A DNA stretch of 64,000 bases from positions 196,001-260,000 of the forward strand of contig NW_024881864.1 in NCBI RefSeq assembly GCF_019059575.1. Reading direction: 5' to 3'. Made by a program: the position numbers and the translations under genes. The notes beneath the pieces were generated by a model. The model searched no databases. It had not been told where the DNA came from and saw only the letters and a list, made by a program, of their open reading frames with translations. Of this stretch, positions 14,940-59,960 are shown one piece after another (position 1 is the first letter of the stretch; each line of letters begins with the position of its first letter). The DNA comes from Amphibalanus amphitrite. Its lineage: Eukaryota > Arthropoda > Thecostraca > Balanomorpha > Balanidae.

Positions 14940-15069
14940 TAGAAAATAATGTCCGTGAAGTTAGCGTCAGCAACAGCAACGAATACAGCGTCGGATTCAG
15001 AATCGCTTAAAAAACTCATATTTGGTCCATTGGGGGACGGGGAGCAAGAATATGACCTTTATTTGGCCC

Positions 15070-17029
15070 TAGCTCTTACCCCTTACCCCTTAATCGGCCC
15101 TTAAAGGAAGGGGCGCGTCAAAAGTGCCTCAAGGGTTCGTCTGATCGCCAAAATAAGAGTCGCAATCGATTCCCCGGGTCAATATCTAGCCGCAGCCTCG
15201 GGTTCCAGATGTGTGCAACTTACCCCTTACCCCTTAATCGGCCCTTAAAGGAAGGGGCGCGTCAAAAGTGCCTCAAGGGTTCATCTGATCGCCAAAATAA
15301 GGGTCGCAATCGATTCCCCGGGTCAATATCTAGCCGCAGTCTCGGGTTCCAGATGTGTGCAACTTACCCCTTACCCCTTAATCGGCCCTTAAAGGACGGG
15401 GCGCATCAAAAGTGCCTCAAGGGTTCGTCTGATCGCCAAAATAAGGGTCGCAATCGATTCCCCGGGTCAATATCTAGCCGCAGCCTCGGGTTCAAGATGT
15501 GTGCAACTTACCCCTTACCCCTGAATCGGCCCTTAAAAGAAGGGGCGCGTCAAAAGTGCCTCAAGGGTTCGTCTGATCGCCAAAATAAGGGTCGCAATCG
15601 ATTCCTCGGGTCAATATCTAGCCGCAGCCTCGGGTTCCAGATGTGTGCAACTTACCCCTTACCCCTGAATCGGCCCTTAAAGGAAGGGGCGCGTCAAAAG
15701 TGCCTCAAGGGTTCATCTGATCGCCAAAATAAGGGTCGCAATCGATTCCCCGGGTCAATATCTAGCCGCAGTCTCGGGTTCCAGATGTGTGCAACTTACC
15801 CCTTACCCCTTAATCGGCCCTTAAAGGACGGGGCGCATCAAAAGTGCCTCAAGGGTTCGTCTGATCGCCAAAATAAGGGTCGCAATCGATTCCCCGGGTC
15901 AATATCTAGCCGCAGCCTCGGGTTCAAGATGTGTGCAACTTACCCCTTACCCCTGAATCGGCCCTTAAAAGAAGGGGCGCGTCAAAAGTGCCTCAAGGGT
16001 TCGTCTGATCGCCAAAATAAGGGTCGCAATCGATTCCTCGGGTCAATATCTAGCCGCAGCCTCGGGTTCCAGATGTGTGCAACTTACCCCTTACCCCTGA
16101 ATCGGCCCTTAAAGGAAGGGGCGCGTCAAAAGTGCCTCAAGGGTTCATCTGATCGCCAAAATAAGGGTCGCAATCGATTCCCCGGGTCAATATCTAGCCG
16201 CAGTCTTGGGTTCCAGATGTGTGCAACTTACCCCTTACCCCTTAATCGGCCCTTAAAGGACGGGGCGCATCAAAAGTGCCTCAAGGGTTCGTCTGATCGC
16301 CAAAATAAGGGTCGCAATCGATTCCCCGGGTCAATATCTAGCCGCAGCCTCGGGTTCAAGATGTGTGCAACTTACCCCTTACCCCTGAATCGGCCCTTAA
16401 AAGAAGGGGCGCGTCAAAAGTGCCTCAAGGGTTCGTCTGATCGCCAAAATAAGGGTCGCAATCGATTCCTCGGGTCAATATCTAGCCGCAGCCTCGGGTT
16501 CCAGATGTGTGCAACTTACCCCTTACCCCTTAATCGGCCCTTAAAGGACGGGGCGCGTCAAAAGTGCCTCAAGGGTTCGTCTGATCGCCAAAATAAGGGT
16601 CGCAATCGATTCCTCGGGTCAATATCTAGCCGCAGCCTCGGGTTCCAGATGTGTGCAACTTACCCCTCACCCTTTAATCGGCCCTTAAAAGAAGGGGCGC
16701 GTCAAAAGTGCCTCAAGGGTTCGTCTGATCGCCAAAATAAGGGTCGCAATCGATTCCTCGGGTCAATATCTAGCCGCAGCCTCGGGTTCCAGATGTATGC
16801 AACTTACCCCTTACCCCTTAATCGGCCCTTAAAGGAAGGGGCGCGTCAAAAGTGCCTCAAGGGTTCGTCTGATCGCCAAAATAAAGGTCGCAATCGATTC
16901 CTCGGGTCAATATCTAGCCTCAACATCGGGTTCCAGATGTGTGCAACTTACCCCTTACCCCTTAATCGGCCCTTAAAGGACGGTGCGCGTCAAAAGTGCC
17001 TCAAGGGTTCGTCTGATCGCCAAAATAAG
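15070..17029. repeat. 144-bp satellite array, left block, with trimeric higher-order repeat
   Basis: About 13-14 units of 144 bp, each containing CTTACCCCTTAATCGGCCC, CAAGGGTTCGTCTGATCGCC and CAATATCTAGCCGCAG. 144 is divisible by three, so a 641-codon open frame runs through the array (repeat start MCATYPLPLNRPLK). Diagnostic variants (GAAGGGGCGCGTC versus GACGGGGCGCATC; TTCCCCGGG versus TTCCTCGGG; GTTCCAG versus GTTCAAG) recur in the same order every three units, giving a 432-bp higher-order repeat for at least three rounds (about 15209-16500). I do not regard the frame as a gene. Confidence 0.92.
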
Positions 17030-17030
17030 C

Positions 17031-18393
17031 CGTTATGCGCCAGGCGCGGCCATAGCGCGGGACGCGACGCCAGCGCCGCCTATCGGCAACGCCAGAGAAC
17101 TAAGGTCGGTGAGAGCACGGATTTTGATGGGTGATAGCGCAGTGTGAAAAAATAGGAAAGTTACATGAAAATATCGCTATACTACGGTATAGTTCACCAT
17201 CTGAGCGACATATTTATGTATTTTTATCCATGGCGGATAAAAATTGGACCCGGGATCTGGCCATGGAAGAAAAAAATATTGGTCAGTGTAAGCACGGATT
17301 TTCGTGGAAATGAGCACAGTGTGAGAAAATAAGGAAGTTACATAAAAATGTCGCTATACGACGTTGTAGTTCGCTATCTGAGCAACATATCTATGTATTT
17401 GTTATCCATGACGGATAAAAATTGGACCTGGGATCTGGCCATGGAAGAGAAAAATGTTGGTCAGCGTAAGCACGGATTTTCGTGGAAATGAGCACAGTGT
17501 GAGAAAATAGGGTAGTTACATAAAAATGTCGCTATACTACGCTGTAGATTACCATCTGAGCAACATATTTATGCATTTTTTATCCATAGCGGATAAAAAT
17601 TGGACCTGGGATCTGGCCATGGAAGAAAAAAATATTGGTCAGTGCATGCACGGATTTTCGTGGAAACTAGCACAGTATGAAAAAATAGGCAGCTTACATA
17701 AAAATGTCGCTATACTACGCTGTAGCTCACTAACTGAGCAACACATCTCTGCACTTTTTATCCATAGGAGAGAAAAATTCGACCCGGGATCGGGACATGG
17801 AAGAAAAAAATATTTGCACCACCAAATGAAATTAAGATACATCACTCCCGTTATATTTGTATTGAGTCTTTCATGAAACAATTTCGCTATACTACGGCAA
17901 ACAGCATGACGTCTCGCATATATTGAGACATATTTTGACAATGCAATGTAGGTATAATACAATCTGGAATGTTCATAAACATTTTATCTTCTCCTGCCAA
18001 ATCCCGGTGCCAATTCTCCCCGAATATTGGTAAAAAATACGTCAGGGTAAACGCATATTACTGAATTTAATTGCATTATATCGCATTTTTCAGTTTATCG
18101 TTAAGTCTCCACACAGGGACGTTTTCATCTGAAGTTTGGCCGCCGGAGCCACCGCGAGGCCTAGTTGCACGAGTAGCCGATAGTCGGCGCCACCGTCGCA
18201 CTCGGCCGCAGCCAGTATACTGCCAAAAATGGAGCTATTATGATATCGCTCGTTGGTAACTAAGTGTGGCGTGCTTCATAAATGATCGCCGCATAGAGAA
18301 ACAACCGTTTAATGAAGTAAATGACTTATATTTTACTCATAATAACAATCTGAACCCCAATGTCCGCTTCTATATGGAGTTTGGCGCATAACG
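17031..18393. mobile_element. Element nested in the satellite array, with its own tandem repeats
   Basis: The 144-bp unit is broken after CCAAAATAAG and resumes at GTCGCAATCG. The inserted 1.36 kb begins CGTTATGCGCCA and ends TGGCGCATAACG, a 12-bp perfect inverted repeat. No clear target duplication is visible. The interior holds about four 180-bp tandem units and otherwise no coding. Confidence 0.7.
17125..17860. repeat. ~180-bp tandem repeat, four copies
   Basis: AGCACAGTGTGAGAAAATA starts recur at about 17136, 17312, 17490 and 17669. Each is followed by TCGCTATAC, ATCCATGGCGGATAAAAATT and GATCTGGCCATGGAAGA. Short open frames reflect the repeat. Confidence 0.85.
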
Positions 18394-20013
18394 CGTCGCA
18401 ATCGATTCCCCAGGTCAATATCTAGCCGCAGCCTCGGGTTCCAGATGTGTGCAGCCTACCCCTTACCCCTTAATCGGCCCTTAAAGGAAGGGGCGCGTCA
18501 AAAGTGCCTCAAGGGTTCGTCTGATCGCCAAAATAAGGGTCGCAATCGATTCCTCGGGTCAATATCTAGCCGCAGCCTCGGGTTCCAGATGTGCGCAACT
18601 TACCCCTTACCCCTTAATCGGCCCTTAAAGGAAGAGGCGCGTCAAAAGTGCCTCAAGGGTTCGTCTGATCGCCAAAATAAGGGTCGCAATCGATCCCTCA
18701 GGTCAATATCTAGCCGCAGCCTAGGGTTCCAGATGTGTGCAACCTACCCCTTACCCCTTAATCGGCCCTTAAAGGAAGGGGCGCGTCAAAAGTGCCTCAA
18801 GGGTTCGTCTGATCGCCAAAATAAGGGTCGCAATCGATTCCCCGGGTCAATATCTAGCCGCAGCCTCGGGTTCCAGATGCGTGCAACTTACCCCTTACCC
18901 CTTAATCGGCCCTTAAAGGACGGGGCGCATCAAAACTGCCTCAAGGGTTCGTCTGATCGCCAAAATAAGGGTCGCAATCGATTCCCCGGGTCAATATCTA
19001 GCCGCAGCCTTGGGTTCCAGATGTGTGCAACTTACCCCTTACCCCTGAATCGGCCCTTAAAAGAAGGGGCGCGTCAAAAGTGCCTCAAGGGTTCGTCTGA
19101 TCGCCAAAATAAGGGTCGCAATCGATTCCTCGGGTCAATATCTAGCCGCAGCCTCGGGTTCCAGATGTGTGCAACTTACCCCTTACCCCTTAATCGGCCC
19201 TTAAAGGACGGGGCGCGTCAAAACTGCCTCAAGGGTTCGTCTGATCGCCAAAATAAGGGTCGCAATCGATTCCCCGGGTCAATATCTAGCCGCAGCCTCG
19301 GGTCCAGATGTGTTCAACTTACCCCTTACCCCTTAATCGGCCCTTAAAGGAAGGGGCGCGTCAAAAGTGCCTCAAGGGTTAGTCTGATCGCCAAAATAAG
19401 GGTCGCAATCGATTCCTCGCGTCAATATCTAGCCGCAGCCTCGGGTTCCAGATGTGTGCAACTTACCCCTCACCCTTTAATCGGCCCTTAAAAGAAGGGG
19501 CGCGTCAAAAGTGCCTCAAGGGTTCGTCTGATCGCCTAAATAAGGGTCGCAATCGATTCCTCGGGTCAATATCTAGCCGCAGCCTCGGGTTCCAGATGTG
19601 TGCAACTTACCCCTTACCCCTTAATCGGCCCTTAAAGGACGGGGCGCGTCAAAAGTGCCTCAAAGGTTCGTCTGATCGCCAAAATAAGGGTCGCAATCGA
19701 TTCCCCGGGTCAATATCTAGCCGCAGCCTCGGGTTCCAGATGTGTGCAACTTAACCCTTACCCCTTAATCGGCCCTTAAAAGAAGGGGCGCGTCAAAAGT
19801 GCCTCAAGGGCTCGTCTGATCGCCAAAATAAGGGGCGCAATCGATTCCTTGGGTCAATATCTAGCCGCAGCCTCGGGTTCCAGATGTATGCAACTTACCC
19901 CTTACCCCTTAATCGGCCCTTAAAGGAAGGGGCGCGTCAAAAGTGCCTCAAGGGTTCGTCTGATCGCCAAAATAAAGGTCGCAATCGATTCCTCGGGTCA
20001 ATATCTATCTAGC
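18394..20013. repeat. 144-bp satellite array, right block
   Basis: About 11 more units in the same orientation as the left block. They are more mixed in variant order and include small length changes that break the open frame (near 19305). Units identical in variant pattern to the left block occur, so the two blocks were one array before the nested insertion. Confidence 0.9.
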
Positions 20014-20019
20014 TTACCC

Positions 20020-20330
20020 TTAGCTAGGGTAAGGGGTAAGTTGCACACATCTGGAACCCGAGGCTGCGGCTAGATATTGACCCGGGGAATCGATTGCGAC
20101 CCTTATTTTGGCGATCAGACGAACCCTTGAGGCACTTTTGACGCGCCCCGTCATTTAAGGGCCGATTAAGGGGTAAGGGGTAAGTTGCACACATCTGGAA
20201 CCCGAAGCTGCGGCTAGATATTGACCCGGGGAATCGATTGCGACCCTTATTTTGGCGATCAGACGAACCCTTGAGGCACTTTTGACGCGCCCCTTCCTTT
20301 AAGGGCCGATTAAGGGGTAAGTGGTAAGAG
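20020..20330. repeat. Inverted satellite units forming the inner right arm
   Basis: Two units of the 144-bp satellite in reverse orientation (GGTAAGTTGCACACATCTGG, then CGGCTAGATATTGACCC). They follow a short junction (TATCTATCTAGCTTACCCTTAGC) where orientation flips. They mirror the first units after the left arm, so the terminal inverted repeat includes satellite DNA. Confidence 0.88.
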
Positions 20331-20463
20331 CTAGGGCCAAATAAAGGTCATATTCTTGCTCCCCGTCCCCCAATTGACCAAATATGAGTTTTTTAAGCGA
20401 TTCTGAATCCGACGCTGTATTCGTTGCTGTTGCTGACGCTAACTTCACGGACATTAGAAAATA

Positions 20464-36836: not shown

Positions 36837-36954
36837 CCTACATACAGGGGCGTCGCCGACGGGGGGGTCGGGGGGGTCGCGACCCCCCCACTCGTCAGAA
36901 CCGGGGGGGTCGAACCCCCCACTTTTGGCGATGCTGAATATGCTTTTTTTAGCT

Positions 36955-37205
36955 ATCATGTCAGGGAAGTTGGCGTCAGCAACATCAACAAATACAACGT
37001 CAGATTCAGAATCGCTTCAAGAGCTCCCTAGTCCCTATTGCTTATAGGTCAATAAGCTGTGGGCTAGAACATCAGCATGACAATATGATTTTAGTCCCTT
37101 TTTATCCCTCAAATGAGCGAGCGCGTCAAAACTGGCCTAAGCGTTCGTCTGATTGTCAAAATGATGGTTGCAGTCGATTCGTCGGATGACGTATCAGTAA
37201 CTACG
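36955..37205. repeat. Relic of the satellite-bearing element with a single monomer
   Basis: ATGTCAGGGAAGTTGGCGTC, then TCAGATTCAGAATCGCTTC, follows the left arm of the 14949 element at roughly 80-85 percent by eye. It then continues into one diverged satellite unit (GAGCGCGTCAAAACTGGCC, GCGTTCGTCTGATTGTC, CAGTCGATTCGTCGG). There is only one unit. Confidence 0.75.
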
Positions 37206-37926
37206 AGGTACCTGGCTAGCCTCAGCCCTGCTACCCTCGGACCTGCCTGCATAGGGGAAATGGGGTCAGATGGTGGATCCCTCTGGGGCTTTCCTAATAA
37301 GACGCGCAAAAAGGAGTATATTGCAACGAAACTTCCAGTTACCTCGAGTTAATGAATTTTACACCTATTCTAAAAAAATGGCCCTGATTCGAATATGGAT
37401 GACCTTGGTTAACTTTTTTGAGTTTTATTTGCTTCCACTTACAAGTGTGGTTTTTGGGGCTGATTTCGAGTTTAGCGCCCGTTTGAACCGTTTGAAGTAG
37501 TTTTGATAAATGATGGTTATGTAACATGTTACGAAGCTATCGTTGGTGGTTGTCAGTCACCCACTCTAGATGGCCGGGAGGAAGCCTGCTGGTCGACCTG
37601 ACCTGACCCGACCCGATCTACCCAAAATGCATGGAGTCATCATCTTTGTTCAAGACTAACATCGAACTCGTACTCGGGACCCCGATAACAGCTACGGCTC
37701 ACTAAGTTCTAGCAGGCGGACAGATTTTTCCTACTTTTGGGCGTTGACCTAAGATGACCAGGCCAAGACCTTGAAATTGGGCATCATCGGCTTTCTCTCA
37801 TCACGGGCAGCATTTTCGCTCTTCCGCGAAACTCTACCTCGATCAGGGGCCGAAAGCACGCCTTATGCGTTACGTTGGTAAACGTTTTACCTTAGCGACC
37901 CGCAAAATACGAATAAGAGTAACTAA

Positions 37927-38388
37927 TACGAATACTGTATCACAATTTACGGCAACGGTTCGAAGAAGAACCTTGGTGCCATTCAGAAGATTATAAATTA
38001 CGGGGCCAAAACAATTTTCGGACGCAAAAAGTACGATCATGTATCGGATCTGCTCGAGAAGCTGCGTTGGCTCAGTGCGGAGAATCTGGTGTCATATCAC
38101 ACACTGTGTATGATCCACAAACTGCTGCGCTTCCGGGAGCCCGATGAATTGTCGGCCGGCCTGTCTACAGTGGCCGAGACCCGGGGTGTGTCGGGAGCCC
38201 TAGACAGGGTCACCAGGCAGGACCGCGCACCGTATGTGCCCCGGTCCAAGACCGAGACGGGGAAGAGGCGCTTCAGGTGCCGTGGTCCAGCCCTGTACAA
38301 CACCCTACCACCCGAACTGCTGGAGCTCCCTGTGCCCATTTTTACACGCCGACTCAAGCAGCACTTGTCCGCTCGACCACCAGACTGA
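37927..38388 (+). pseudogene. CR1-like LINE reverse transcriptase, C-terminal fragment
   Basis: Open reading to a TGA at 38386. It has the wording found at the C-terminal end of CR1/L2/Jockey-type ORF2 proteins: KNLGAIQKIINYGAKTIFGR, KYDHVSDLLEKLRWLS, the YHTLCMIHKLL segment, RFRCRGPALYNTLPPEL and FTRRLKQHLSAR. The upstream polymerase and endonuclease regions are absent, so this is a 5'-truncated insertion. The retained part has no stop. Clade assignment is from memory of the family pattern. Confidence 0.75.
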
Positions 38389-38580
38389 TTATACTAACTA
38401 CTTTTTAGCCACGGGGTGTATGTGTTATGTTGTATGCTCGTATGTGAATGTGTGCGTGTGAACTGTGCATGAACTCCATGTTGAGCCTAATGATGACCAG
38501 CCCCATTTTTTACTATATGACGAGAGGTATTAAAAGCCACTCCAAGTGGAGCACCTCAATAAATGTCTGAGTCTGAAAGA
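38389..38580 (+). mobile_element. LINE 3' untranslated region
   Basis: After the stop comes a TGTGTGCGTGTG-type tract, then CTCAATAAATGTCTGAGTCTG with AATAAA at about 38559. That is an expected 3' terminus for a polyadenylated or CR1-type element. Confidence 0.5.
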
Positions 38581-39568
38581 GCTACAGCAACACAGAAAGC
38601 GTATTCGATAGCTTTTTAAAGCTCTTTCGCCAACTTCGCTTCAGATATGACTTCGGGTCTATGGCTTGTGTACCATAGAGTCCAAACAGCTAAACGGACG
38701 GATTTTGCCGAAACATTTGTTCTGTAACAACCTATGATTCAGTGAATGTGTATGATATTCATGTTATCACCATCGTTTTTGCTTCGTCGAAACACGTCGC
38801 ATGGCTTACAATTTGAACTTAAAAACTTGAATAGAAAACTTGACATCAGGTAAAGGTCATGACCTGACCGGAAAAGAACCTGCTGCATATGGATCGATCT
38901 GTGTTACTGAGCTGAACACACTCCAGGTGCTGTCATCGCTCTACAACGTCTCCATCAAAAGTTGTTGTCGAAAATGTGTTAGAGACCTTTGATGACCTAA
39001 TGACTGACCAGTGACCATTTCAGTCACCACTGGTCATTAGCTGCACCTTATCTCTAAAATGAACAAGGTGCCATGGCTACAAAAGTATCTAGTGTTTTTA
39101 GCATATTCTTTCAAAGCAGAGGGCATCGTGCTTTTTCCCATATCTTATCATGATTGGTGAGGTCACACACCTATTTGACCTGACTTCGCTTCTCAGATGT
39201 AAAATCCCAGATTCATGAACTGTTGGCACTTATAATCCCATTCATTACACCAAATTTCAGACTGATAAGAGTCAGGAGATAATCTATAGGAATGACAAGA
39301 TTGCAGTTTTAAGAGGCATTAAAACTGAACTTGACATGACATTGTGACCTTACCTCAGGTGACCTCTGCTAGATTTTTATGCACGATGCAAAATTGATGT
39401 ACAATAAGATATACCGCTGCTTTCGCGGCACTGCGCGCCGAGGTTTTTCTCCGGGCACACGAAAAAAACCGGGAGTGTGGCTAAAAACACCCCTACCCAT
39501 CAAGACGAAGACCGGAAACCCGACCCCCCCCCCACTCAAAAATCCGTGGCGACGCCCCTGCCTACATA

Positions 39569-42490: not shown

Positions 42491-45400
42491 GTGAGATTCA
42501 CATGTCCCACTACTTGAAGTCACAGATTGTCCCAAACTTTCTATTGGACTCGTCTGAAGCCCATGCCAGTGTGAGATCAGATTCTTGCCCTTCTTTGGGT
42601 CCTCTCTGGAGTTTCTCTGTCGCTCAGGGTGTCTGCTGGCCTGCCCCTGAGTCCCCTAGTTTGACTCGTCGCTGTGGCGCAGGGTGTCTGTCGGCCTGCC
42701 CCTGAGTCCCCTAGTTTGACTCGTCGCTGTGGCGCAGGGTGTCTGCCGGCCTGCCCCTGAGTTGACTCGTCGCTGTTTGACTCCCCTAGTTTGACTCGTC
42801 GCTGTGGCGCAGGGTGTCTGTCGGCCTGCCCCTGAGTTGACTCGTCGCTGTTTGACTCCCCTAGTTTGACTCGTGGCTGTGGCGCAGGGTGTCTGTCGGC
42901 CTGCCCCTGAGTTGACTCGTCGCTGTTTGACTCCCCTAGTTTGACTCGTCGCTGTGGCGCAGGGTGTCTGCCGGCCTGCCCCTGAGTCCCCTAGTTTGAC
43001 TCGTCGCTGTGGCGCAGGGTGTCTGCCGGCCTGCCCCTGAGTCCCCTAGTTTGACTCGTGGCTGTGGCGCAGGGTGTCTGCCGGCCTGCCCCTGAGTCCC
43101 CTAGTTTGACTCGTGGCTGTGGCGCAGGGTGTCTGCCGGCCTGCCCCTGAGTCCCCTAGTTTGACTCGTGGCTGTGGCGCAGGGTGTCTGCCGGCCTGCC
43201 CCTGAGTTGACTCGTCGCTGTTTGACTCCCCTAGTTTGACTCGTGGCTGTGGCGCAGGGTGTCTGTCGGCCTGCCCCTGAGTCCCCTAGTTTGACTCGTG
43301 GCCGTGGCGCAGGGTGTCTGCCGGCCTGCTCTCGGTGGACCTGCTGGACAGTGATGAGCTGCGCGCGCGGCTGCGGCAGCTGGCGCCGCAGGTGATCGTT
43401 CACTCGGCCGCCTACCGCTCGCCGGACCAGGTGGAGGCGGACGCGGCGGCCGCGCGCCGGATGAACGTGCACGCCTCGCAAGTGATCGCCGAGGTGGCCG
43501 GTGAGTGCCCGCGAGACGAAGCGGTAGGATGAACGGTACCTGCTCTTATGACGTAAAATTGATCTTGCCGACGTAAAATTCATGCTGTGTGATCTTTTCA
43601 CCTTTCTATTGATATGTGGGGCATTCCACGATAGATCGTATCACTTTTTTCCAATTTGACACCCTCATCTCTCGGAATTTGACGAGAATTGGTCTCAGGG
43701 GTAATCAGGGGCTCTGAATCCACCTGTAACAATTTCAGGCTTATCAGATAAGTATTTTTTGAGTTATGGTGTATAACATTTTTTGGATCTTGCTTTGCAG
43801 CGCTAAGTTTGGCGGGCTGTAACTCTAAGACGGATTATTCAAATGCCAAATGTTATATAACATTGAACTTGCAATGAAACAGAGATTAATATGTATTTTT
43901 GAAATTTCGAAAAATACGCTATTTTTGATATATGACATATCGAGTTTTCTTTCGTTTGTATTTTTGGACTTTGGGACCAATTTTTTTTTTGAATTTTTAT
44001 TTCTTTAAAAAATATTTGGCTCATTGTTAAGAAGTATTCGAAAAATTAGGAAGGTGTTCTTTCTATAAATGTATTTATTTTACGTCACGATAACGGTTTC
44101 GAATAGTGATTTCGGGAGGGGAGCTTACAAATGGCGTGGTAAAGCTGCCTAGTAGGGTTGTTAAAAAAAAACGATTTTTGGAAAAGTATATGGGCTCATG
44201 GCTCATGTGGTGCGGTATTCTTTTCTGAGTCCAATGATACCTTTTTTTCCGAAAAGTATTACTGCTAGGCGCTGCTCAAACGGCTTAAAGAGGACCATGT
44301 TACGCCCGCCGACCGGCCGGTGTCAATAAGGGCGAGAACTCGACGCCGCGCGCCGGCGGCAGCGCCTTATCGGCGCCGCGCGCCACGGCATCTGCCGGGC
44401 GGCCGGCTGGGCGGTGGGAAGTTATAAGTGCGTGGTCTTATTGCACACGATCGGGGTGCGCTATCCCATGTTTTCGGGGCGGAACGTTTCAGTGCAGCAT
44501 CGGTGCGTCTGCCATGGTGGTCTGTGTCGATGGTACAGAAAATAACTCAAACAGAGCTCAGAAAAGACTGAATGATTCTGGGTAGTTGCCTCGAAACAAT
44601 CCGTTTCAAGAATACAGCTGCCTTCTTAACGTACTGTATCACTTTTTAATTCTTCAAAAAGCAAGCTCTGAGCAATAACAGACTTCTTTGCATTGCTGTT
44701 GACAATTTAAGTTGCTTTTGGACGGTGGCTCGCAGCCCCAATATGCTGCCGCGTAACTCTATTCCAACGACGAAACGGCAACTTAGCGAGAATCGAAAAT
44801 TTAACGAAGTAGGTACAACAGGAGCTGGCAAGGCTCCTGCATTGGTCTTTCCGTCATGAGTGACACACCTGGGTAATGCGTCACGTCAGGGCAGAGCTGT
44901 GTTCTATGCCGGGTCTGGATTCGGGTCTTGATCGGCATCGGTGGGCACGGCCGCCCTGGCCGGACTGCCGGCGTCGCTTATGCTCGAAGGATTGGATAAA
45001 AGGCGCTTTATATGTACTCCGGCTAATGTCTCTACTCATGTCTCACTTCGTCACACTGTCAGGTTGGCCACCCTGTCATTCCCGGACATGTTTTATTTCG
45101 GCCTGCTAATCTAAGTTAAACCTGGCGTCGATTCTGTTGCTTCAGCATTTGACATCAACGTATCTGCATAATGACATTGGTGACGCCCATGCTCGTCAAA
45201 CCCACCCCCAAACTTGGACCGATGACTTCCGGGTCTCCATATTCTGTTCTTGTGCATTGCCAGCTCTTGCTGTACGTAAATCGTGAATTTTCGATTCTCG
45301 CAAAGTTGCGCGTTTCGCCGTTAGATTTAACCCGCGACCGCCTGGGGGGGGGGGGTCGGATCCGACCCCCCCTCCGTTTTTCTTGAATAACTCATGAACC

Positions 45401-48400: not shown

Positions 48401-51400
48401 TCTGAGAAGTCTGATAGTTTGCCAGGCGTCTTTGGGGCCTATGATTACCCCTAGGACCGATTTTCATTAAAATCTGAGAGATGAGGGTGACGGGCCTGGT
48501 ACGATCTATCGTGGAATGCCCCATGTAAGAAGACAAAACAATATTTATCCGCGTCATTTTTGTTTCGTATAGCGTCCAGGAAAACTTATTGTGGATCCTC
48601 TCAGGTCGTTAGAACCATTCACTAAACTTAGATTAGTGTTGTTAAGCCTAATTTTAATGTGTCTGTTAGTGATATTATCGTGTGGGAACAAATTCTTCAT
48701 TTCGTGGCTCACTTTTGGGTCGAGTCCATTGGACCCATATTATTCAGCTGCTTTTTTTATTCCGTTGCCACGATGCAGCAGCTACTGGTCGCACCAATCA
48801 AAAATACATACCACCACACATGCCGCTGCCAGCATCGTATCGCTGCGCCGGTCCGCCGGCCGCGCTCCTCACGCGCCTCCCACGGCCTCCCCCCGCCGAC
48901 AGCCGAGCTGGGCGCGCAACTGCTTTACATCAGCACCGACTACGTGTTCGACGGCTGCTCGCCGCCCTACAAGGCCGACGACCCGCCCAACCCCCTCAAC
49001 CTGTACGGCCAGACCAAGCTGGAGGGGGAGCGGGCCACCCTGCACGCCTGTCCCGGTGAGCTGGCGGTAACCCAGCGGGGGATAGTTGGGATCGGACTTT
49101 GTCTAGGTGGGCTTGGTTTTAGGCGTGTGGTATGATCGTCGACTGTCAGCTATAATTTGCTGTAAGTGTGCGCTCGTAACCTTTTTATTCTCTGCCGCAC
49201 TCTGGCCACCACCACCACCCCGCCGCTGTCTGTATTGTGTGACGCCGCCCCCACCACCCCTGCCGCTGTCTGTATTGTGTGACGCCGGCTCCACCACCTC
49301 GCCGCTGTCTGTATTGTGTGACGCCGGCCCCACCACCCGGCCGCTGTCTGTATTGTGTGACGCCGGCTCCACCACCCCGCCGCTGTCTGTATTGTGTGAC
49401 GCCGGCCCCACCACCCCGCCGCTGTCTGTATTGTGTGACGCCGGCCCCACCACCCCGCCGCTGTCTGTATTGTGTGACGCCGGCCCCACCACCCGGCCGC
49501 TGTCTGTATTGTGTGACGCCGGCTCTAACACCCCGCCGCTGTCTGTATTGTGTGACGCCGGCTCTAACACCCCGCCGCTGTCTGTATTGTGTGACGCCGG
49601 CTCCACCACCCCGCCGCTGTCTGTATTGTGTGACGCCGGCTCCACCACCCCGCCGCTGTCTGTATTGTGTGACGCCGGCCCCACCACCCGGCCGCTGTCT
49701 GTATTGTGTGACGCCGGCCCCACCACCCTGCCGCTGTCTGTATTGTGTGACGAGGGCCCCACCACCCCGCCGCTGTCTGTATTGTGTTACGCCGGCTCCG
49801 TATCGGCAGGGGCTCTGGTGCTGCGCGTGCCGGTTCTGTACGGACCCGTCGAGCGGCTGGACGAGTCGGCTGTGACCGTGCTGCTACGCTGTCTGCTGGA
49901 GCCGCCGGCGGCCGGCTGCGCCGTCTCCGACCTCGAGAAGCGCTACCCAGCGCACGTGCGTGACGTGGCCGACATCTGCCACCGGCTGCTGGAGAAGCAG
50001 CGTGAGGTGAGCGCCCGTGGTCCCAGCCAGTGCCCTGTACAGTCTGGGGGCTGGGTGGCTGGTTTTGCGGCTGATACTGTTGTCGTCTTACAAGGGCTGT
50101 AAGGTGGCGTATCGTACTAGGCCGCGTTGACTCCACGCTGCAGTTGCTTTTATTAATTTGCCTCATGAGTCTTATTGTACGGTGATGAAGGATGATGCTG
50201 GTATTGCGCTGTTAACCCGCGCCGTGGTGGGGAGGGGGAGGGGGGGGGGAGCCTGGAGGAGGGGCTGTTTTTGCCCCCTCCAGTCTTTTCGTATTATCTC
50301 TAAAACTACGGCGCCGATCGTCTGGGAACTTTCAGTACCCTCTCGTACATCACTTTAACACATTGTGTCCAAAAGTTGTTCCAGAGCCTTTGACAGGTTG
50401 TCCCTAAATGACGTCAGGGACGTCATATTCAGCCATTTTCGGGCCCAAAAAGGTTTTGTGGGAAGAGTTATCATGCCTACAGTTTTTCAGATAGAGCAAA
50501 TTTTTCAACATCAAAAAGATGTAAAATGAACAGGGCTACACAACTGCTATCTCGTTTTTTTTTTTAGTTTGACCTTTTTGAAAAAGTTCAAAAAAGTTAT
50601 TTTTTAAATAATACCCTGAATATACCAAACATATTCAAAATTTCGAAAAGAGCCAGAATATTTGCTATAGACCTATTAGTCAGCTATCAACATGCCGAAT
50701 TTGAGCTGCGTAACTATTTTGGGCGAAGTTTTGGCAAAAAAAGAAACTGCTAAAAATGATGGCGTCAGATATTTAAACTCAATTTTTAGCTCTTATAGAC
50801 CACGTAGAAGTAAAATAAGACCACCATTTGACTCACCCTGATGAACTGCATTGAATAGATATCCTTTTTATGCAAAATATTAACTTTGAAATTTGACCTT
50901 TTTTTACCTAACCTTGACCTGACCTCCACCAGAACGTAACCCTCATCGTCCCTGATGGTCGTCTAACCGACATCGTTAAGCTGGAAATGAAAAAAATGGC
51001 CACAAAACATGCATCACACGGTCCTAATAAAGTTGGGTTTATGACATATGTTGACCCTAGGTGACCTGGCATCAGTGACCTCTTTTGACAACACATGCAC
51101 TAGACAACCGACGCTCTAAGGATGATTTTCGATAACATGTGTTTTACTCGATGCTATAACGTATTTTCTAGAAGACACGTGAACGGTGAAACGTTTTAGA
51201 TTTGACGTGACCTGTGACGTCATCGGTGACCTCGAGGTCAATGAAATTAATTTTCCCGTGACAGTGTTTACAAGGCTTAAGGCTATCGAACGCCGCTCGA
51301 TTTTTGCGTATCCGTCCAGTAGTTTCGGAGCTGGTGGGGGGGGGGGGGGGGGGTGGCGGGCAAAAAATAGATCTCCACCCCGGCCACCAGGTCACGTTAT

Positions 51401-56524: not shown

Positions 56525-56599
56525 AAAAACAAAATTACGTAAGCCCGGGACGCTCCCAGAGTGGGACGCGGACGAAACCGATATAGCATACACGGTTGC

Positions 56600-57065
56600 G
56601 TATACGTCCAGCCAATCTGTGACCGACTAACGCTGCAGCTCAGGCATACACCGTTGCGTACACGTCAGGCCAATCTGTGACCGACTAACGCTGCCTCTCA
56701 GGCATATACGGTTGCGTACACGTCAGGCCAATCTGTGACCGACTAACGCTGCCTCTCAGGCATCCACGATTGCGTACACATCTGGCCAAATTGTGACCGA
56801 CTAACGCTGCGTCCCACAGAGTGGCATACGGCCAGCAGTGAGCTGACTCCAGCCCATACACCGTTGCGTACACGTCAGGCCAATCTGTGACCGACTAACG
56901 CTGCCTCCCAGGCATATACGGTTGCGTACACGTCAGGCCAATCTGTGACCGACTAACGCTGCCTCTCAGGCATACACGATTGCGTACACGTCTGGCCAAA
57001 TTGTGACCGACTAACGCTGCTTCCCACAGAGTGGCATACAGCCAGCAGTGACCTGACACCAGCCC
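56600..57065. repeat. 58-bp minisatellite with longer periodicity
   Basis: About seven copies of CAGGCATATACGGTTGCGTA then CACGTCAGGCCAATCTGTGA and CCGACTAACGCTGC. A block with CACAGAGTGGCATACGGCC recurs after about 212 bp, so there is a second-order repeat. Confidence 0.9.
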
Positions 57066-57854
57066 AGATGGCCCGCTGCAGACCCGGTGCAAGACGACCC
57101 CCAATCAGCTGCGGACCTGCGGTCCGGTCGCCGGGCCAAAGGCCGCTAGGCCACGGTCACGGTCATCTGACGACACGGCGGGTGAATCAACCGGGCCGCC
57201 TCACGGCGCGGATGACGGTTACGTAATGACACGCCCGCGCCTGCGCCGCTGGCGGCCACGTGGCTACCAGCAGTTGCTGTCGCTGCCGCCGCGGCGCCAC
57301 CAGCGCTGGAGGTGTCCACACCTACCGCTGACGTCACGATCACGCGATCGCTGGGCAGAGGTCACACGATTGCTGCTCGGACCCGCCAAGATGGCGTCAG
57401 GGTGGCTTGGCCTTGGGTGCACAGAGACATTAGGTCATGCGCGTGGACAGGGCGATGAATACAACAAGATACGAGGCTAGCAGTCTGGTGGCAGCATAAG
57501 ACGTAACTCCCTGAATTGCGGCACGAGCGTAACTGCGTATACGGTCGCCGGCGCAAACGCGCTATGGCCGACGACGCGATCGCGGGCCGCGGCGCGCCCC
57601 TGCGGCCGTAGGGGACACCACAGTTGTCGGTGGTGCAGGAACCTGCGGCAAGGGCCCTAAGAGGCAATGATAGAAAAAAAATATAAAACAGCCAGCGACT
57701 GGTACTTTGGTCTGGCAGTTCCTAACTGAGAGCCGGCTGCCAGTGCCGCGAGCCCACTGGGCGAACATAAACATACGACACCACGGCCCAGCCAGGCCAT
57801 CTCGGCGTAATGCACCCACCACGTGGGGAGAACTCACCAGATGTGGTCCAACTA
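57066..57854. other. No gene seen
   Basis: GC-rich sequence with short overlapping frames. No domain or repeat structure could be supported. Confidence 0.4.
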
Positions 57855-59569: not shown

Positions 59570-59960
59570 GCGGCATCTTCCGTCATCGTCTTTGCGGCGA
59601 CAGCAGCTTCCGCAGCATCTCTCCGCGGCGGCATTTTCACCCCAGCGTCATCGTCTCTGCGACGACAGCAGCTTCCGCAGCATCTCTCCGCGGCGGCATC
59701 TTCTACCGCAGCGTCATCATCTCGGCGGCGACAGCAGCTTCCGCAGCATCTTTCCGCGGCGGCATGTTCTACCGCAGCGTCATCGTCTCCGCGACGACAG
59801 CAGCTTCCGCAGCATCTCTCCGCGGCGGCATGTTCTACCGCAGCGTCATCGTCTCCGCGACGACAGCAGCTTCCGCAGCATCTCTCCGCGGCGGCATCTT
59901 CCACCGCAGCGTCATGGTCTCTGCGGCGACAACAGCTCCCGAAGCATCTTTCCGCAGTGC
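59570..59960. repeat. 66-bp minisatellite
   Basis: Five to six units containing CAGCAGCTTCCGCAGCATCT, CTCCGCGGCGGCAT and CGCAGCGTCATCGTCTC. 66 is divisible by three, so long frames exist in several registers (repeat SVIVSATTAASAASLRGG). These are repeat translations. Confidence 0.9.

What the first reader, a model, noticed from the sequence alone, without database searches (positions are those of the whole stretch)
14949..20454. Mobile element built around a satellite array, with satellite inside its inverted termini
A 5.5-kb element has a perfect 9-bp duplication (TAGAAAATA), ~125-bp unique arms and a satellite of about 25 units between. The last two units are inverted so that the terminal repeat itself includes satellite. 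This links a transposition event to a whole satellite array and gives a route for satellites to spread.
Basis: partly seen in the sequence, partly recalled or inferred. Interest (0 to 1): 0.75.

Follow-up and report, generated by a model that had tools for sequence, protein, structure and literature searches.

The report
Jumping DNA palindrome carrying satellite repeats
This is a real mobile DNA element of a known general type: two short end sequences enclose two facing blocks of a 144-letter satellite repeat, and about two hundred such elements have spread this satellite through one genome of some 800 million letters.

Summary
A 1,365-bp foreign insert splits the array.

In its 807.5-Mb genome the arm tip occurs 449 times (reversed-pattern control 0); 81 of the 100 listed places form 40 facing pairs of 0.45-18.2 kb. 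Of 36 elements with both ends read, 26 have perfect 9-bp duplications, 3 have 8/9, 7 have none. All 21 two-armed copies read in full are palindromic: arm, forward array, junction, inverted array, arm. They are non-autonomous foldback transposons, closest in design to Tetris of Drosophila virilis, with far longer arrays.

Two additions. (1) The centre differs: 22 copies show 20 distinct junctions, and four copies sharing end units have three centres, so centres are broken and rejoined, and arrays resized, during spread. (2) A repeated hAT-like family (one copy at 36845-39560) holds one contiguous arm-plus-single-unit homologue, a probable source.

The MULE assignment rests on the 9-bp duplication alone; no transposase-bearing partner was found, in capped lists.

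The parts
14940..14948 (.). left target-site duplication TAGAAAATA
14949..15074 (+). left arm, 126 bp, outer part of the terminal inverted repeat; tip ATGTCCGTGAAG
   Evidence: 449 tip matches genome-wide
15075..17029 (+). satellite array, forward, 13.6 units of 144 bp
17030..18394. foreign insert splitting the array (inverted ends CGTTATGCGCCA / TGGCGCATAACG, internal 178-bp tandem repeat); no match in the 20 stretches or the 30 loci
18395..20007 (+). satellite array, forward, 11.2 units
20008..20026 (.). central junction with 19-bp filler where the array turns round
20027..20328 (-). satellite array, inverted, 2.1 units
20329..20454 (-). right arm, 126 bp, inverted
20455..20463 (.). right target-site duplication TAGAAAATA
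36958..37183 (+). single-copy homologue of arm + about 100 bp of one satellite unit, inside a separate hAT-like element (36845-39560); probable source or captured relative, not part of this element

Best explanation
A non-autonomous foldback DNA transposon family. The terminal inverted repeats are a 126-bp arm followed by a variable tandem array of a 144-bp satellite, and the two arrays meet directly in the middle. SHOWN by sequence: insertion at many sites with 9-bp duplications outside the arm tips, of whole structures from 0.45 to 18.2 kb; arrays that differ by whole units between sister copies; centres remade many times, with short overlaps or filler. INFERRED: the transposase comes from elsewhere and is Mutator-like (9-bp duplication only); arrays resize by unequal exchange or slippage; the centre of the large palindrome is prone to breakage, by hairpin cutting or by interrupted gap repair after excision, and is closed by end joining, so most lineages have their own centre. 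The arm and unit probably descend from one stretch of a hAT-like transposon.
For: 449 arm tips, control 0; 81 of the 100 listed places form 40 convergent pairs of 455-18,178 bp. 9-bp duplications perfect in 26 and 8/9 in 3 of 36, including the 18.2-kb, 14.7-kb and 455-bp copies. The 21 two-armed copies read in full, the window copy included, show arm-forward array-inverted array-arm, some with inserts. 22 copies, 20 distinct junctions. C748 and C135 share the junction and end units but differ in duplication and in unit number (99 against 42); C83 and C75 share end units (up to 16 windows of 144 nt at >=98%) with other centres. C7 and C9b, duplicates of one locus, have the same junction and right array but 4 against 7 units on the left. 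Overlap in the 10 junctions without filler averages 3.6 bp (2.4 without C18) against 0.68 for random joins; leaving out the 10 filler junctions overstates this.
Against: No transposase recognised in the copies read and none linked to the arms, but inserts were only inspected, not searched with profiles. 7 of 36 elements lack a direct duplication: C7, C9b, C61 and C128 share one inverted flank (150-163 bp in C7 and C9b; 12 letters seen in C61 and C128), C15 has a 76-bp inverted flank, and C111 holds two elements tip to tip. Of the 18 loci, six do not show two arms: three run off the stretch or contig (C1507, C740, C534), C284 keeps only part of the left arm, and C1207 and C459 show no left arm in the 10 kb read. 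One array (C85) has no arm on the side seen. Left and right lengths, inserts included and one end estimated, correlate only weakly (Spearman 0.41, P=0.10, n=17). About 50 of roughly 225-250 elements were read in whole or part, and the 18 loci were taken from the best-scored arms.
Confidence: 0.83

Rival explanations
1. Centres differ because of transposition-coupled, interrupted gap repair: after excision the broken donor site is refilled from both ends out of a sister copy and the two unfinished ends are joined. Same family, one account of the centre.
For: Ends of C748, C135, C83 and C75 are shared for several to many units while there are three centres; filler and overlaps at junctions; the inverted flanks of C7, C9b and C15 look like copying from the opposite terminal repeat out into the flank.
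Against: Whole-unit gains and losses also occur away from the centre. C748 and C135 kept one centre through at least one transposition, so renewal is not obligatory.
Confidence: 0.4
2. Centres differ because palindromes break at the hairpin tip whether or not the element moves (centre-break revision, a model recalled from palindrome work, not read here) and are joined asymmetrically.
For: Two near-symmetric centres exist (C284 and C5: forward and inverted phases differ by 1 base), as expected of freshly turned palindromes; most others are not symmetric.
Against: The window copy has 24.8 forward and 2.1 inverted units, an asymmetry too large for trimming a symmetric palindrome at its tip alone.
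Confidence: 0.35
3. An ordinary satellite array that happened to be flanked by a MITE pair or by two solo copies; no transposition as a unit.
For: Arrays are long (up to 99 units in the copies read) and units are alike, as in satellites.
Against: 9-bp duplications around the whole structure, one shared centre at two sites with different duplications, and satellite seldom found away from arms in the sample examined.
Confidence: 0.03
4. The palindromes are foldback artefacts of long-read sequencing or assembly.
For: Such artefacts exist (PMC12870357, seen only in the listing). C7, C9b and C15 have inverted flanks of 76-163 bp, and C16 holds an inverted duplicate of one locus.
Against: An artefact would give inverted flanks, not the direct 9-bp repeats (perfect or 8/9) seen around 29 of 36 elements; left and right unit strings of one copy are not mirror copies.
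Confidence: 0.04

Closest known systems
Tetris (Drosophila virilis foldback element, PMC4079207; Results part 1 and Discussion part 1 read)
   Same: Non-autonomous; flanking domain plus ~220-bp tandem repeats inside the terminal inverted repeats; 8-10-bp duplications; repeats homogeneous and also found as satellite; transposase unknown.
   Different: Tetris: three structurally complete copies, a middle domain, and 408 of 610 repeats on contigs without the flanking domain. Here: roughly 225-250 elements, no middle domain in the copies read, arrays to 99 units, and satellite mostly bounded by arms in the sample examined.
Galileo subfamily F (D. mojavensis, PMC3573991; passages)
   Same: About 210-bp tandem repeats inside terminal inverted repeats, varying independently in the two ends.
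   Different: P superfamily, bounded by 7-bp sequences, up to three repeats.
Tm1 (Meloidogyne Mutator/foldback, PMC3169594; passages)
   Same: Foldback-like termini with tandem motifs; 8-10-bp, mostly 9-bp, duplications in 45 of 53 elements; MITE-like members.
   Different: ~14-bp motif; transposase-bearing members known and Phantom-like.
Rehavkus and aphid Phantom MULEs (PMC6446971; passages)
   Same: 9-bp (Rehavkus) or 8-10-bp (Phantom) duplications and a minisatellite near one end.
   Different: Encode a transposase; the repeat lies at one end, not as facing arrays. No sequence comparison could be made.
Xenopus MITEs with satellites (Xstir, miDNA4; as told in the review PMC12628747, section 6 part 1)
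   Same: A satellite array of variable length rides inside a non-autonomous inverted-repeat element.
   Different: miDNA4 is Tc1/mariner; the part of the review that I read describes no facing arrays within the terminal repeats.
Drosophila FB/NOF (recalled, from no call)
   Same: Long internally repetitive inverted ends, 9-bp duplications (recalled).
   Different: Short repeat units and, in some copies, the NOF gene (recalled).

Membership tests
Foldback (structural class of DNA transposons) | Long terminal inverted repeats containing tandem repeats of variable number | tested here: met
Foldback (structural class of DNA transposons) | Target-site duplication on insertion | tested here: met
   26 perfect and 3 at 8/9 of 36
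Foldback (structural class of DNA transposons) | Little or no coding middle region | tested here: met
   No middle domain in the 21 copies read in full. The window's long frames are satellite read-through; Pfam gives two hits above cut-off to unrelated families (CILP_C, PsV_CP_C), each over 19-23 residues of the repeated peptide and with no stretch passing on its own
Mutator/MULE superfamily | 8-11-bp target-site duplication | tested here: met
   9 bp; range from PMC6446971
Mutator/MULE superfamily | MULE transposase inside some copies, or sharing the same termini | tested here: inconclusive
   111 PF10551 hits in the genome, none within 90 kb of an arm listed (capped lists, compared by eye). 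100-base samples of the 18.2-kb and 14.7-kb copies: 15 of 20 satellite, 5 other sequence not identified
Rehavkus | PHD-finger transposase with 9-bp duplication and minisatellite | not tested
   No Rehavkus sequence at hand; definition from PMC6446971
hAT superfamily | 8-bp target-site duplication | tested here: not met
   9 bp in this family; the hAT-like element at 36845-39560 has 8 bp. hAT rule, label and tip are recalled
Tetris | Sequence homology with Tetris TIR-FD / TIR-220 | not testable with these tools
   No Tetris sequence held; unit here is 144 bp, not ~220

The most novel reading that the evidence does not exclude
The satellite exists in this genome almost wholly as cargo of a self-remodelling mobile palindrome: spread carries up to dozens of units to a new site, and the centre of the palindrome is repeatedly broken and rejoined, so that junctions are a natural record of germline palindrome breakage; and the arm plus unit arose from one stretch of a hAT-like transposon that was taken over by a different transposase.
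Probability: 0.4. Interest if true: 0.66.

Novelty: new variant of a known kind. Interest (0 to 1): 0.54.

Why it matters
How satellites reach many places in a genome is an old question. Here one genome holds roughly 225-250 elements, most of the sampled ones marked by a 9-bp duplication, with arrays from under one to about 100 units and with sister copies that share ends, a centre or both. That makes array growth, transposition and palindrome breakage separable and measurable in nature.

Tried and rejected
Autonomous partner: MULE-domain scan compared by eye with the arm lists; none within 90 kb. L043 (C9:955450) has 45 bp of arm followed by other DNA; its frames suggested nothing to me, no profile search was made, and I read it as a truncated end. 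Non-satellite stretches inside copies: of 14 insert boundaries printed for the fetched copies, 10 have TTAA at both joints with CCC..GGG ends, that is piggyBac-like (label recalled); 4 do not (L019, L022, both in L027). They were inspected for frames (longest 155 aa), not searched with profiles. C101 and C112 hold further unidentified non-satellite DNA.

Exceptions: C7, C9b, C61 and C128 looked at first like failed duplications. C7 and C9b share about 1 kb of left flank and the same centre, and C61 and C128 show the same 12 flanking letters, so the four are probably one event amplified.

Arm tip (exact) in IMG/VR viral contigs: 0. Rfam on the window: 0. ARAGORN's tRNA-Arg at 36845 is the GC-rich end of the hAT-like element, so probably false.

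Full report
What is there. The window lies in an 807.5-Mb genome (G000, contig C367). The element spans 14949-20454, 5,506 bp, between perfect copies of TAGAAAATA. From the outside in: a 126-bp arm; a forward array of a 144-bp satellite (13.6 units, a 1,365-bp foreign insert at 17030-18394, then 11.2 units); a 19-bp filler at 20008-20026; 2.1 inverted units; the inverted arm. The terminal inverted repeat is 428 bp at 98% identity.

Copies. The 26-base arm tip with up to 2 mismatches has 231 forward and 218 reverse matches; the reversed pattern has none. Of the 100 places listed (all 0-mismatch, C2 to C173), 81 make 40 convergent pairs (one with a doubled left arm) of 455 to 18,178 bp, and 19 are single; some partners may carry mismatches and so be unlisted. 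Two subfamilies differ in the inner arm and by several letters per unit: 259 and 243 ends at <=2 mismatches (a few ends could match both patterns). This makes roughly 225-250 elements.

Plan. Twenty stretches covering 18 loci were fetched, chosen from the 40 best-scored arms, and read together with 30 loci of 3 kb and 43 small pieces. Twenty-one copies with both arms were read in full: window, C748, C438, C135, C83, C75, C1693, C1333, C1329, C1159, C887, C397, C314, C5, C7, C9b, C15, C18, C28, C61, C128. All 21 show arm, forward array, one switch, inverted array, arm, with or without foreign inserts. Six of the 18 loci do not show two arms: C1507, C740 and C534 run off the contig or stretch, C284 keeps part of its left arm, C1207 and C459 show no left arm in the 10 kb read. 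The smallest copy, C28 (455 bp), is arm, 0.7 unit, 0.7 inverted unit, arm. The 18.2-kb C112 and 14.7-kb C101 were only sampled (20 pieces of 100 bases: 15 satellite, 5 not). Of 14 insert boundaries printed, 10 have TTAA at both joints and CCC..GGG ends, that is, piggyBac-like (label recalled); the unit contains TTAA.

Duplications. For 36 elements both ends were read. Perfect 9-bp direct repeats: 12 (window, C438, C135, C83, C75, C1693, C1333, C1329, C1159, C887, C748, C397), 7 (C5, C6, C9:155403, C13, C16:1592843, C18, C19:696917), 7 (C28, C112, C101, C36, C43, C63, C24). Eight of nine letters: C2:2623076, C107, C314. None: C7, C9:1727989 (C9b), C61 and C128, whose flanks are inverted copies of each other (150-163 bp in C7 and C9b, 12 letters seen in the other two); C15, with 76 bp inverted; and two elements on C111 that touch tip to tip. 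The second C16 copy is an inverted duplicate of the first locus and is not counted; C284, whose left tip is missing, is not counted. The 26 perfect duplications show no strong consensus.

Is the satellite ever without arms? A 27-base unit probe (<=2 mismatches) finds 6,806 units, about 0.98 Mb if each stands for 144 bp. Its first 100 listings lie in only three loci: two arm-bounded elements and one unit (C2:474878) about 5 kb from an arm. A rarer unit variant gave 60 hits. On C1-C433, where the arm lists reach, these fall in 20 loci (C16 counted twice, being duplicated): 17 in or beside listed arms of the right orientation, four of them by one listed tip or inner-arm word only or with a damaged end (C132, C138, C284, C397:524775, the last 10.8 kb away); 2 (C123 and C126, duplicates of each other) with a decayed partial arm; 1 (C85) starting abruptly with no arm on the side seen. 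Hits beyond C433 were not assessed as a set. This is a sample, not a census.

The centre. In 22 copies the switch point was placed on the unit. There are 20 distinct junctions: 10 with 1-44 bp of filler, 10 with 0-14 bp of overlap. Two junctions occur twice. C7 and C9b are duplicates of one locus and have 4 against 7 units on the left. C748 and C135 have the same junction in opposite orientation, different duplications (GAACGGGGA, GGGTCAGGT), and 99 against 42 units, part units included: a transposition pair. C83 and C75 share end units with that pair (for example C135 left and C75 right: 16 windows of 144 nt at >=98%, about 2.3 kb) but have two other centres. So within one recent lineage ends are inherited, arrays are resized in whole units, and the centre has changed at least twice. 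Overlap at random joins averages 0.68 bp; the ten overlap junctions average 3.6 (2.4 without C18, whose overlap lies in an internal repeat), a comparison that favours overlap because the ten filler junctions were left out.

Homogenisation. The two ends of one element are more alike than ends of different elements, among 17 elements: arm 0.989 against 0.971, units 1-2 0.978 (16 elements) against 0.955, units 3-4 0.971 (10) against 0.927, units 5-8 0.965 (8) against 0.932. Left and right lengths correlate weakly (Spearman 0.41, P=0.10, n=17; lengths include inserts, and the left end of C284 was estimated), which does not separate the models of the centre.

Origin. Window 36845-39560 is a hAT-like element by its tip and its 8-bp duplication CCTACATA (label recalled; it was not searched for a transposase). 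From 113 bp inside its left end runs a stretch homologous to the arm (86% over 69 bp) and, collinear with it, to one satellite unit (77% over 75 bp). Forty copies, this one included and as many as the tool scored, match the first 416 bp at 96-100% over nearly the whole length, so the stretch belongs to the family and is not a stray insertion in one copy. The simplest reading is that arm and unit derive from this stretch and the unit was later tandemised; the reverse, capture by the hAT-like family, is not excluded.

Mechanism. Shown: insertion with 9-bp duplications, movement of whole arrays, whole-unit array change, repeated remaking of the centre. Inferred: cut-and-paste by a transposase supplied in trans; Mutator-like by duplication length (8-11 bp, PMC6446971 passages). 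The genome has 111 MULE-domain hits, so a helper may exist, but none is within 90 kb of a listed arm. For the centre I weigh interrupted gap repair and hairpin-tip breakage about equally; the inverted flanks of C7, C9b and C15 look like repair that copied from the opposite end and overshot into the flank, which leans towards gap repair.

Known relatives. Foldback elements with tandem repeats in their inverted ends are an established kind. Tetris is the nearest in what was read (Results part 1 and Discussion part 1), then Galileo F (passages) and Tm1 (passages). A review tells of Xenopus MITEs carrying satellites (section 6 part 1). In six searches of the open-access library, judged by their listings, I saw no report of a foldback family made only of arms and facing satellite arrays with copy-specific centres; most subscription papers are not held, so this is a limited statement.

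Verdict. Observation confirmed; interpretation right in its main point, unproven as to MULE. New variant of a known kind. The copy-specific centres and the probable source make it more useful than another satellite-bearing transposon, but not a new category.

Noticed in passing
window 36845-39560: hAT-like element with 8-bp duplication CCTACATA, a stretch that by eye reads like part of a reverse transcriptase (not searched), and a single arm-plus-unit homologue; ARAGORN calls its GC-rich end a tRNA-Arg, probably falsely.
   Followed up: partly
window 17030-18394: Insert inside the satellite with 12-bp inverted ends CGTTATGCGCCA and its own 178-bp tandem repeat (3.9 copies): a second repeat-carrying element nested in the first.
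   Followed up: partly
L062 (G000:C111:796700-796930), between elements at 789381-796812 and 796813-803532: Two elements of the two subfamilies joined tip to tip with no base between and no common outer duplication.
   Followed up: partly
L039/L040, L044/L045, L060, L061, L049/L050: Copies whose outer flanks are inverted repeats (76-163 bp where measured) instead of direct duplications; four show the same flank letters.
   Followed up: partly
L031 (C2:2623076): Left end doubled: arm, 22 bp of satellite, then arm and array again.
   Followed up: no
L011, L020, L021, L024, L025: Ten piggyBac-like TTAA insertions inside the arrays; the satellite unit contains TTAA and seems a landing site.
   Followed up: partly
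C16:1592843-1597618 and 1931221-1935996 (L051-L054): The same element repeated in inverted orientation about 338 kb apart, with at least 1.5 kb of one flank and 130 bp of the other: segmental duplication or assembly duplicate.
   Followed up: no
window 42617-43329, 49212-49796, 56586-57066, 59581-59955: Several further tandem arrays (units 55, 39, 58 and 66 bp) in the same window.
   Followed up: no
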